Source of the DNA: Spartobacteria bacterium
Lineage (GTDB): Bacteria > Verrucomicrobiota > Verrucomicrobiia > Chthoniobacterales > UBA10450
Length of the DNA: 64,000 nt
Direction of reading: 5' to 3'
Assembly: GCA_003167555.1 (NCBI GenBank)
Contig: PMSN01000012.1
Span: 1-64,000 of the forward strand
Shown here: in pieces, positions 57,502 to 59,859 of the stretch
How the letters are laid out: each line of letters opens with the position of its first letter
Position numbering within the stretch: position 1 is the stretch's first letter
Made by a program: the position numbers and the translations under genes
Notes under the pieces: model-generated
The model's database searches: none
Told to the model about the DNA's origin: nothing
The model's input: the letters and a program-made list of their open reading frames with translations, nothing else

Positions 57502-59859
57502 CTATTCCCGTAGTTCCACTCCCAATTCCCGCTGCAACCGCTCGCGAATCTTCGCGTGGACCACGGTAATTTCGTCGTTCGTCAGTGTGCGAGCTTTGTC
57601 GCGGTATGTCAACGTATATGCCAGCGACTTTTTTCCCGCGCCCAAACTGGCCGCCTGTTCTCCGCTGAAAAGATCGAACAACTCGACGCTCGCCAGCAAC
57701 GGTTCGCGTGCTTCGCCGATCGCCGCCATGATTTTTTCGTGGCTCAATTCTTCCGGAACAATCATCGCGATGTCGCGCGTGATCGCCGGGAATTTTTCGA
57801 TCTCGCGAAAATTTTTCGTGTCGTGGGCGGCCATCACCTCAGATTGGATTTCAATCTCCGCGACAAGAACTGGAGCGACAGCGCCCGTAGTGGCGGCATG
57901 CGTGGCGGCGAGTTGTCCGAAAAAACCGATGACCTCGGAGCCGGACAAGACATCCGCGCTGACGGAAAGTTCCGGCCGCTCGGAGCGGCGGAAGGAGAGC
58001 TCCTGGATTCCAATTGTTTCGATGACGCCTTTCAAATCGAAAAGATCGAGCCGGCGACTGCCGGAGCGCCAGTGGGCGCGGCTGGCAGCGCCTCCAGAAG
58101 AAACCAGCGCCAGACTTCTTTTCTCCAATCCGTTTGGCGGAGTGAAGATGCGGCCGAGTTCGAAGAGGCGAATGCTCGACGCGCCATTGCGGACGTTGCG
58201 GCCGAGAACCTGGAGCAGGCCGGAAAGAAGCGTGGGCCTCAGCGCCACGTGATCTTCGCTGAGTGGATTGCGCAGCTCGACCGCACCAGTCCCGAACAGG
58301 CTGACTTGGCGCGGGATCAACGCAGAGGTGCGCGCTTCGAAAATTCCGCGAGCCACGAGCCGCTGCCGCAACGCGGATTCAAAATCGTAAATGCGATCCG
58401 CTGCGGATTCCAGCGTGAACCGGCTTCGATCTCGCAACGGCACGCGTTCGATTCCGAAGACACGGACAACTTCTTCGATCAGGTCCGCCTCGCGCTGAAG
58501 ATCGAAACGAAAACTCGGAATTCGCCACGACGCTTCCTCGGCTCCTGGACTCGTTTTCTCAAGGCCGAAGCGTTCGAGAATTTCGTCCACGCGCTTGCTC
58601 GGGACCGGGAGACCGATGAGCCGGTTACAGCGCTCGTAACGCAGCGAAACATCCGGCGGCGGTGCGGGGAGCGCGCCCGCGGTTGCGATTTCGGCAGCCG
58701 GGTTTCCGCCTGCAATCTCGCGAATCAAGTCGGTGGCGCGTTGCGACGAGGGAAGAATCATTCCGGGATCGACCCGGCGTTCGAAGCGGTAACTTGCATC
58801 GCTCGGAAGGTTCAAAGTTCTTGCCGTACGCCGCACGCTGGCCGGATCAAAGAAGGCGCTTTCCAGAAGCAAGGTCGTCGTCGATTCCGTGACGCCGGTG
58901 TCTTCGCCGCCCATGACTCCGGCGATCCCGACCACGCGCGCGTCATCGGCGATGACGAGATCGCGCTCGCCTAAAGAGTAAGTTTTTCCATCGAGCGCGA
59001 GAAATTTTTCTCCCGCGTTCGCCAGCCGGACGGTGATGCCGCCCCGCAATTTGTCGGCATCGAAAGCGTGGAGAGGCTGGCCGAATTCCAGCATCACAAA
59101 ATTCGTGATGTCCACGATATTGTTAATGGAACGCAGCCCGACCGCTTCCAGTTTCGCCCGCAACCATTCGGGGCTGGGACCGACCTTGATGTTCTCGATC
59201 CGGCGCGCGGAATAAAATGGACATTCGTTTGGCGCGGAGATGCGCACACCCTCCTGCTTCAATGGTAGGGACGGCGCGCTGCGCTGTCCGGGGTCATCGC
59301 AGCGCGATGACCCTACCAGCGCAGAAATCTCGCGGGCGAGCCCGTGATGACTCAGCAGGTCGCCGCGGTTCGGCGTGATCTCGACGTCCAGAATTGTATC
59401 GTCGGGAAAGAGCGATGCGATCGGCTCGCCGATTTTTGCGTCGGGAGAAAGGATGAGCAATCCATCACTGTCTTCGGAAAGGCCGAGTTCACTCGGGCTG
59501 CACAGCATTCCCTGCGACTCGACGCCGCGCAGTTTGCTCGGCTTGATTTTCAAATCGTTCGCCAGGACCGCGCCCGGCAGAGCGAGCGGGACCTTGTCGC
59601 CGACCTTGTAGTTCTTCGCGCCGCAAACGATCTGGCGCGGTTGGCCGCTGCCGTCATCGACCTGGCAAACGCTCAGGCGATCCGCGTTCGGATGTTGCGC
59701 GGAAGCGGTGATTTGCGCGACGACCACTTTGTCGAAATTCGCGCCGCGCTTTGCGATCCCCTCGATTTCAATCCCGGCGAGCGTCAGCAGTTCGGCCAGC
59801 TCCTCGATGTTCGAGGGCAGCTCAACAAATTCGCGCAACCAGTTAACGGAGAATTTCAT
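57502..59859 (-). CDS. pheT: Phenylalanyl-tRNA synthetase beta subunit
   Basis: MKFSVNWLREFVELPSNIEELAELLTLAGIEIEG; NPNADRLSVCQVDDGSG; EITPNRGDLLSHHGLAREISAL; VDITNFVMLEFGQPLHAFD. The listed ORF start at 59970 includes repeat-derived residues. Confidence 0.96.
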   Translation of the reverse strand: MKFSVNWLREFVELPSNIEELAELLTLAGIEIEGIAKRGANFDKVVVAQITASAQHPNADRLSVCQVDDGSGQPRQIVCGAKNYKVGDKVPLALPGAVLANDLKIKPSKLRGVESQGMLCSPSELGLSEDSDGLLILSPDAKIGEPIASLFPDDTILDVEITPNRGDLLSHHGLAREISALVGSSRCDDPGQRSAPSLPLKQEGVRISAPNECPFYSARRIENIKVGPSPEWLRAKLEAVGLRSINNIVDITNFVMLEFGQPLHAFDADKLRGGITVRLANAGEKFLALDGKTYSLGERDLVIADDARVVGIAGVMGGEDTGVTESTTTLLLESAFFDPASVRRTARTLNLPSDASYRFERRVDPGMILPSSQRATDLIREIAGGNPAAEIATAGALPAPPPDVSLRYERCNRLIGLPVPSKRVDEILERFGLEKTSPGAEEASWRIPSFRFDLQREADLIEEVVRVFGIERVPLRDRSRFTLESAADRIYDFESALRQRLVARGIFEARTSALIPRQVSLFGTGAVELRNPLSEDHVALRPTLLSGLLQVLGRNVRNGASSIRLFELGRIFTPPNGLEKRSLALVSSGGAASRAHWRSGSRRLDLFDLKGVIETIGIQELSFRRSERPELSVSADVLSGSEVIGFFGQLAATHAATTGAVAPVLVAEIEIQSEVMAAHDTKNFREIEKFPAITRDIAMIVPEELSHEKIMAAIGEAREPLLASVELFDLFSGEQAASLGAGKKSLAYTLTYRDKARTLTNDEITVVHAKIRERLQRELGVELRE
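59264..59317. repeat. 54-bp GGTAGGG palindromic repeat, copy 1, in frame inside pheT
   Basis: ggtagggacggcgcgctgcgctgtccggggtcatcgcagcgcgatgaccctacc; on the minus strand it encodes VGSSRCDDPGQRSAPSLP. Confidence 0.92.

What the first reader, a model, noticed from the sequence alone, without database searches (positions are those of the whole stretch)
59264..59317. Palindromic repeat inserted in frame in pheT, apparently coding for about 18 extra residues
A 54-bp (18-codon) element, ggtaggg...ccctacc, sits inside pheT and is alignable without gaps to the intergenic copy at 55195-55248. It reads VGSSRCDDPGQRSAPSLP between the HGLAREISAL and GVRISAPNECPFYSARR segments, a linker position in PheT. 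The frame is preserved. This resembles the Rickettsia palindromic element (RPE) phenomenon: a mobile palindrome tolerated inside an essential enzyme.
Basis: partly seen in the sequence, partly recalled or inferred. Interest (0 to 1): 0.85.

Follow-up and report, generated by a model that had tools for sequence, protein, structure and literature searches.

The report
Mobile palindrome occupying the PheT linker
A bacterial gene for an essential enzyme, which loads phenylalanine onto tRNA, carries a short mobile-type DNA palindrome in a floppy linker; related species hold a different palindrome at the same spot, so this linker looks like a recurrent, fast-changing landing site for tiny mobile elements.

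Summary
The 54-bp palindrome at 59264-59317 is real and in frame in pheT (minus strand, residues 182-199). It is a REPIN: two GTAG-tagged REP hairpins head to head. Its REP unit has 87 hits in the genome.

It does not add 18 residues. The PheT linker is 31 residues here, 28 in most element-free relatives of the same family, and a median of 32 in 76 distant PheTs. The element sits in place of the normal linker.

PheTs of related Verrucomicrobia carry at least seven different palindrome families in this same linker. Type changes need about 72 steps on a PheT tree; two PheTs 95% identical outside the linker carry different elements. Each family tested also occurs elsewhere in genomes whose pheT carries it. 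Own-family elements in three congeners match at 18 of 18 third codon positions, against 51-56% in the rest of the gene.

A REP-associated transposase bracketed by this family exists in one congener, with a fragmented relative in another; none was found in the window's own genome.

Intragenic GTAG REPs are known, including in Opitutus. One essential-gene linker repeatedly re-occupied by different families was not found in the papers searched. How swaps happen is inferred, not shown.

The parts
59264..59317 (.). REPIN (family A): two GTAG-tagged REP hairpins in inverted orientation, 2 nt between them; codes for PheT residues 182-199
59265..59289 (+). First REP: GTAG (59265-59268), stem GGACGGCGC / GCGCTGTCC with one G-T pair, loop GCT
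   Evidence: read from the sequence
59292..59316 (-). Second REP: GTAG (59316-59313), stem GGTCATCGC / GCGATGACC fully paired, loop GCT
   Evidence: (I2)
57502..59859 (-). pheT, phenylalanine--tRNA ligase beta subunit, 785 aa
   Evidence: TIGR00472, 762.7 bits
59224..59316 (-). PheT linker, residues 182-212, between the B1 and B3/4 domains; low-confidence loop in the model
55195..55248 (.). Second copy of the same REPIN family in the window, 46 of 54 identical, more degenerate, between genes

Best explanation
The palindrome is a REPIN, a non-autonomous pair of GTAG-tagged REP hairpins of the kind thought to be mobilised by REP-associated tyrosine transposases (RAYTs). It occupies the unstructured linker of PheT between the B1 and B3/4 domains, where it codes for 18 of 31 linker residues. 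Shown: the REPIN anatomy; the multi-copy family; the ordinary linker length; different REPIN and other palindrome families at the same linker in relatives, with many type changes on the PheT tree; each tested family present elsewhere in genomes whose pheT carries it; RAYT genes bracketed by the same families in congeners. Inferred: REPINs from the resident population repeatedly enter or replace this linker. In-frame survivors persist because the linker tolerates very different sequences of about 28-44 residues. Once the original linker residues are lost, the element can be exchanged but not simply removed, because PheT needs a linker of some length. In the window's own genome the copy is probably now immobile, since no RAYT bracketed by this family was found there.
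For: REPIN anatomy; ordinary linker length; linker between Pfam domains and low pLDDT; strongest inverted repeat of the gene lies in the linker in 25 of 70 family genes (3.2 expected) but 1 of 76 distant genes (3.3 expected); 21 of 22 element-bearing linkers score in the top 1.5% of synonymous-codon versions, four plain ones do not; 72-73 type changes on the PheT tree; PheTs 95% identical outside the linker with different types; pheT type tracks resident families; 18 of 18 third positions identical in type A of three congeners against 51-56% elsewhere; RAYTs bracketed by family A in G007 and G001 and by family E in G001, G005, G007.
Against: No swap was observed directly. No RAYT bracketed by family A was found in the window's own genome. 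Peptides within a type are uniform (for example SSRCDDRGRRSAPSLP in most type A rows), which random-orientation insertion of random copies would not predict without strand specificity, selection or shared descent. No row in the 127 nearest the window is element-free, so an empty donor site is not seen in that group. Most relatives are known as protein only, so their DNA palindromes are inferred from the peptide.
Confidence: 0.75

Rival explanations
1. pheT alleles with different linkers move between lineages by homologous recombination. Each element entered pheT once or a few times, and its scatter on the tree reflects gene exchange, not new insertions.
For: Uniform peptide and right-hand neighbour within a type, such as ALQKKG after type C in several genera; type changes are frequent.
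Against: Same-type pairs are not more alike than different-type pairs in the 15-residue flanks; congener flank identity is near the gene average; pheT type tracks the families resident in the same genome.
Confidence: 0.2
2. One ancient insertion in the ancestor, inherited vertically; the different types are its diverged descendants.
For: All rows near the window carry some element; some type A peptides look decayed (P0084, P0103).
Against: Types correspond to distinct genome-resident repeat families, interleave on the tree, and type A elements keep all third positions while the gene does not.
Confidence: 0.03
3. The element is kept because its DNA or RNA hairpin or its peptide has a function in pheT expression or enzyme activity.
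For: Element present in all 127 rows nearest the window; third positions conserved in type A.
Against: Very different sequences, including plain linkers in the same family, serve at the same place; the linker is predicted as a low-confidence loop.
Confidence: 0.07
4. It is a Rickettsia palindromic element (RPE) or a direct relative of one.
For: In-frame palindrome inside an essential enzyme.
Against: Tag is GTAG and RAYT-linked in congeners; the intragenic rickettsial repeats RPE-4/6 are CGTC-tagged (PMC3733652); the protein is not longer than repeat-free homologues.
Confidence: 0.02

Closest known systems
GTAG-tagged REPs and REPINs with RAYT transposases (PMC3116915; PMC8266576)
   Same: GTAG foot, short-loop hairpin, inverted pair, many copies per genome, RAYT bracketed by the same REPs in congeners; hairpin like the Stenotrophomonas REP (GTAG, 8-bp perfect stem, GCT loop)
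   Different: This copy is inside an essential gene and coding; those are described as almost all extragenic; no RAYT bracketed by this family was found in the own genome
Intragenic GTAG REPs (Di Nocera et al. 2013, PMC3733652), most numerous in Opitutus terrae (Verrucomicrobia)
   Same: In-frame REP dimers inside conserved genes; tRNA synthetases of other bacteria among the carriers; different REPs at about the same site of recB in two Xanthomonas species
   Different: Here one linker of one essential gene is re-occupied by many families across a clade, and the protein keeps its normal length
Rickettsia palindromic elements (RPE)
   Same: Palindromes in frame inside essential genes
   Different: CGTC-tagged for RPE-4/6 according to PMC3733652; described as insertions into ORFs, whereas PheT here keeps its normal length

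Membership tests
GTAG REP / REPIN | GTAG tetranucleotide at the foot of the hairpin | tested here: met
   both halves, 59265-59268 (+) and 59316-59313 (-)
GTAG REP / REPIN | stem-loop with short loop in each unit | tested here: met
   9-bp stems, GCT loop; on its own the whole 54-mer is predicted to fold as one long hairpin
GTAG REP / REPIN | two units in inverted orientation | tested here: met
   27-nt arms, 81% complementary, 2 nt apart
GTAG REP / REPIN | many copies in the genome, mostly outside genes | tested here: met
   87 hits; in 57 retrieved, partly overlapping loci only pheT, an LMF1-like gene and a GH3 gene appear to carry a copy inside a conserved gene; Pfam was run on only five candidates
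GTAG REP / REPIN | RAYT gene bracketed by the same REPs | tested here: inconclusive
   met in G007 and, as gene fragments, in G001; not found in the own genome
GTAG REP / REPIN | mobility | not testable with these tools
   inferred from type changes on the tree
Rickettsia palindromic element | in-frame palindrome in a conserved gene | tested here: met
Rickettsia palindromic element | CGTC tag of the intragenic RPE-4/6 repeats | tested here: not met
   tag is GTAG; definition from PMC3733652
Rickettsia palindromic element | protein longer than repeat-free homologues by the insert | tested here: not met
   linker 31 residues against 28 and median 32
classical MITE | terminal inverted repeats with target-site duplication | not tested
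   target-site duplication was not looked for; no empty allele of the same site is available

The most novel reading that the evidence does not exclude
The PheT linker of this verrucomicrobial clade is a standing exchange site: resident REPINs replace one another there in one step, in frame, by RAYT-driven or single-strand-mediated replacement, fast enough that species with 95% identical PheT differ. A housekeeping gene would thus keep a running record of REPIN activity.
Probability: 0.35. Interest if true: 0.82.

Novelty: new variant of a known kind. Interest (0 to 1): 0.6.

Why it matters
REPINs are common, but their movement is rarely observed and copies inside essential genes are expected to be purged. 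A single orthologous site with many replacements in closely related species would allow the rate, direction, frame rules and flank changes of REPIN movement to be measured. It also suggests that part of an essential tRNA synthetase is written by mobile DNA and rewritten repeatedly.

Tried and rejected
The 18-extra-residue reading was rejected by linker lengths. One ancient insertion was rejected by the tree and third-position identities. Allelic recombination was tested at 15-residue resolution and found unsupported, not excluded. A plasmid search with the region gave no match. Rfam has no family matching the element. The Y1 transposase genes of the own genome found by Pfam are not bracketed by family A; a further RAYT found with the G007 RAYT as query lies between family B REPs. 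Several long frames over other REP copies were judged by eye to be antisense or upstream frames; only five proteins, pheT and four other candidates, were checked with Pfam. A literature search for phenylalanyl-tRNA synthetase with palindromic in-frame insertions returned nothing.

Full report
OBSERVATION. The sequence at 59264-59317 is GGTAGGGACGGCGCGCTGCGCTGTCCGGGGTCATCGCAGCGCGATGACCCTACC. It lies inside an 822-aa frame whose pheT part starts at 59859 and ends at 57502 on the minus strand; NCBIfam names it phenylalanine--tRNA ligase subunit beta (TIGR00472, 762.7 bits). The alignment to 55195-55248 is gapless with 46 of 54 identities. The palindrome is beyond chance: folding z -5.4 against dinucleotide shuffles, and 0 of 200 synonymous-codon versions reach its inverted-repeat score.

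ANATOMY. Each half is a REP: GTAG, then a 9-bp stem closed by a GCT loop. The two halves face each other with 2 nt between. This is the REPIN plan (PMC3116915), and the hairpin resembles the Stenotrophomonas REP that its transposase cleaves (GTAG, 8-bp perfect stem, GCT loop; PMC8266576). Taken as a whole single strand, the 54-mer is predicted to fold as one long hairpin. In the own genome the REP unit gives 87 hits with up to 3 mismatches against 1 for the reversed control. A second REPIN family, GTAGGGCGAGACTC..., is also present.

NOT AN ADDITION. Between the L of EISAL and the C of ECPFY there are 31 residues here. In 76 distant PheTs the number is 27-38, median 32. Most element-free members of the same taxonomic family have 28, for example TGKKLKSTPRDAKIPVRKTGVTIISTRE. 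The PheT of 4P71 aligns through the linker with one single-residue gap. The element therefore occupies the linker between the B1 and B3/4 domains (Pfam matches end at 179 and start at 213), and the structure prediction gives residues 191-200 a mean pLDDT of 59.

RELATIVES HOLD OTHER PALINDROMES IN THE SAME PLACE. Among 120 close PheT homologues and 70 pheT loci of the family, the linker holds: type A (this element), C (GTAGGGCAACCG or GTAGGGCAAGCG ... GGCAGGCG...CTAC), D (GTAGGGACGTTTCTCCGAAACGTCC), E (GGAGCCGCGACGCCCTCGTCGCGG), F (seen as protein only), G (GTAGCTGCC...), H (TCATTCCGAGC...GGGATGA), J (GCAAGTTTTCAACTTGC), and rarer ones; the rest have plain linkers. The strongest inverted repeat of the gene is in the linker in 25 of 70 family genes (3.2 expected) and in 1 of 76 distant genes (3.3 expected). 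The binomial p of 2e-16 ignores relatedness, but several unrelated element families contribute. Types were assigned by similarity to exemplar peptides plus hand labels for a few rows.

MANY CHANGES OF TYPE. On a FastTree of 192 PheTs built without the linker columns, the types need 72-73 changes; well-supported branches alone force at least 20 for A, 32 for C, 11 for E and 9 for D. The nearest PheTs to the window's own carry C, A with a nested insert, C and F. P0012 (A) and P0044 (F) are 95.2% identical outside the linker. None of the 127 rows nearest the window's has a plain linker. FastTree support is rougher than a full search, so the count is approximate.

ELEMENTS MATCH THE RESIDENT FAMILIES. 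Family D has 8 and 7 hits in G003 and G038, whose pheT carries D, and none in G000, G004, G006. Family E has 54 and 20 hits in G001 and G005, whose pheT carries E, and none in G000, G002, G003; G007 also holds E-like copies while its pheT carries A. Family G is in G006, G020 and G023 only, of seven genomes tested. Family A is abundant in G000, G001, G007 and G004, fewer in G002, absent in G005 and G006. The counts include the pheT copy itself. Family C is present in all eleven genomes tested, so it does not discriminate.

RECENT ARRIVAL OR DNA-LEVEL UPKEEP. Type A elements of G000, G002 and G007 agree at 18 of 18 third codon positions in all three comparisons, against 51-56% in the rest of pheT (Fisher p 4e-5 to 7e-6). 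Selection on the peptide alone would allow synonymous change. Same-type pairs are not more alike in the flanks than different-type pairs, and congener flank identity is mostly near the gene average. This argues against long recombination tracts, within the resolution of 15 residues.

TRANSPOSASE. In G007 a 168-aa REP-associated tyrosine transposase (NF047646, 96.6 bits, cut-off 80) lies between family A REPINs on both sides (L264). A fragmented relative in G001 is bracketed likewise (L277). RAYT-type genes with E-type REPs on one or both sides occur in G001 (L145), G005 (L269, L271) and G007 (L261). In the window's genome the genes found are bracketed by other families or by none; the closest relative of the G007 RAYT there is 42% identical and lies between family B REPs. 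So the pheT copy is probably a resident of a family that has lost its own transposase in this genome, or whose transposase lies in the part missing from the assembly (98% complete).

HOW IT LIKELY WORKS. Shown: REPIN structure, in-frame coding, ordinary linker length, many families at one site, families resident in the same genomes, cognate transposases in congeners. Inferred: REPIN copies reach the linker, by transposition or by short-tract conversion from resident copies, together with loss of the previous linker residues. Type A is 54 bp, but the net gain over plain family members is only 3 codons, and the type C unit of L079 is 46 bp, not a multiple of three, so loss of neighbouring bases must accompany or follow arrival. 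Survivors keep the frame and a workable linker length. After loss of the ancestral linker an element can be swapped but not dropped.

OPEN POINTS. Peptides look uniform within a type, which favours strand-specific insertion, selection, or partly shared descent; these tests do not separate them. Most types are known from protein sequence only. The mechanism of replacement was not observed. Nearly all genomes here are metagenome assemblies; a 54-bp repeat can be misassembled, but with pheT on both sides in over a hundred separate assemblies this is an unlikely cause.

KNOWN OR NEW. Intragenic GTAG REPs are described, most numerous in Opitutus terrae, a verrucomicrobium, and tRNA synthetases are among the carriers elsewhere; different REPs at about the same site of recB were noted in two Xanthomonas species (PMC3733652). 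What I did not find described is one essential-gene linker used again and again by different families across a clade. I therefore rate it a new variant of a known kind. The literature search covered open-licence full texts only.

Noticed in passing
window 57232-57413, minus strand: 6S RNA (RF00013, 50.8 bits, above the gathering score of 46.4) lies downstream of pheT.
   Followed up: no
window about 59872-60031: Long imperfect palindrome between pheS and pheT (gtcatcccgag...ctcgggatgac), similar at its ends to the type H repeats that occupy the PheT linker in some relatives.
   Followed up: no
window 57116-57189: A palindrome that matches a microRNA model on both strands well below its gathering score; most likely another repeat hairpin.
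   Followed up: no
L246 (own genome, contig 13, about 150590-150664): Another family A REPIN in frame in an LMF1-like gene, between the LMF1 and LMF1_C domains.
   Followed up: partly
L230 (own genome, contig 20, about 48189-48214): A single family A REP in frame inside a glycoside hydrolase family 3 gene.
   Followed up: partly
P0002, P0061 (PheT proteins of relatives): Linkers with what looks like a second small insert nested in the element (SSRGACPEPSRRDDRGRRSAPSLP; ETRRSRDGGTAATA), possible intermediates of replacement.
   Followed up: no
L003, L005 (own genome): Two Y1 transposase genes have GGAG-tagged REPs close by on both sides (GGAGCGGCGATTT..., GGAGCGCAGGCTGCC...), further REP families beside the GTAG ones.
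   Followed up: no
L282 (own genome, contig 19, 17064-17426): A further RAYT relative, not reported by the Pfam search, between family B REPs (GTAGGGCGAGACTC...).
   Followed up: partly
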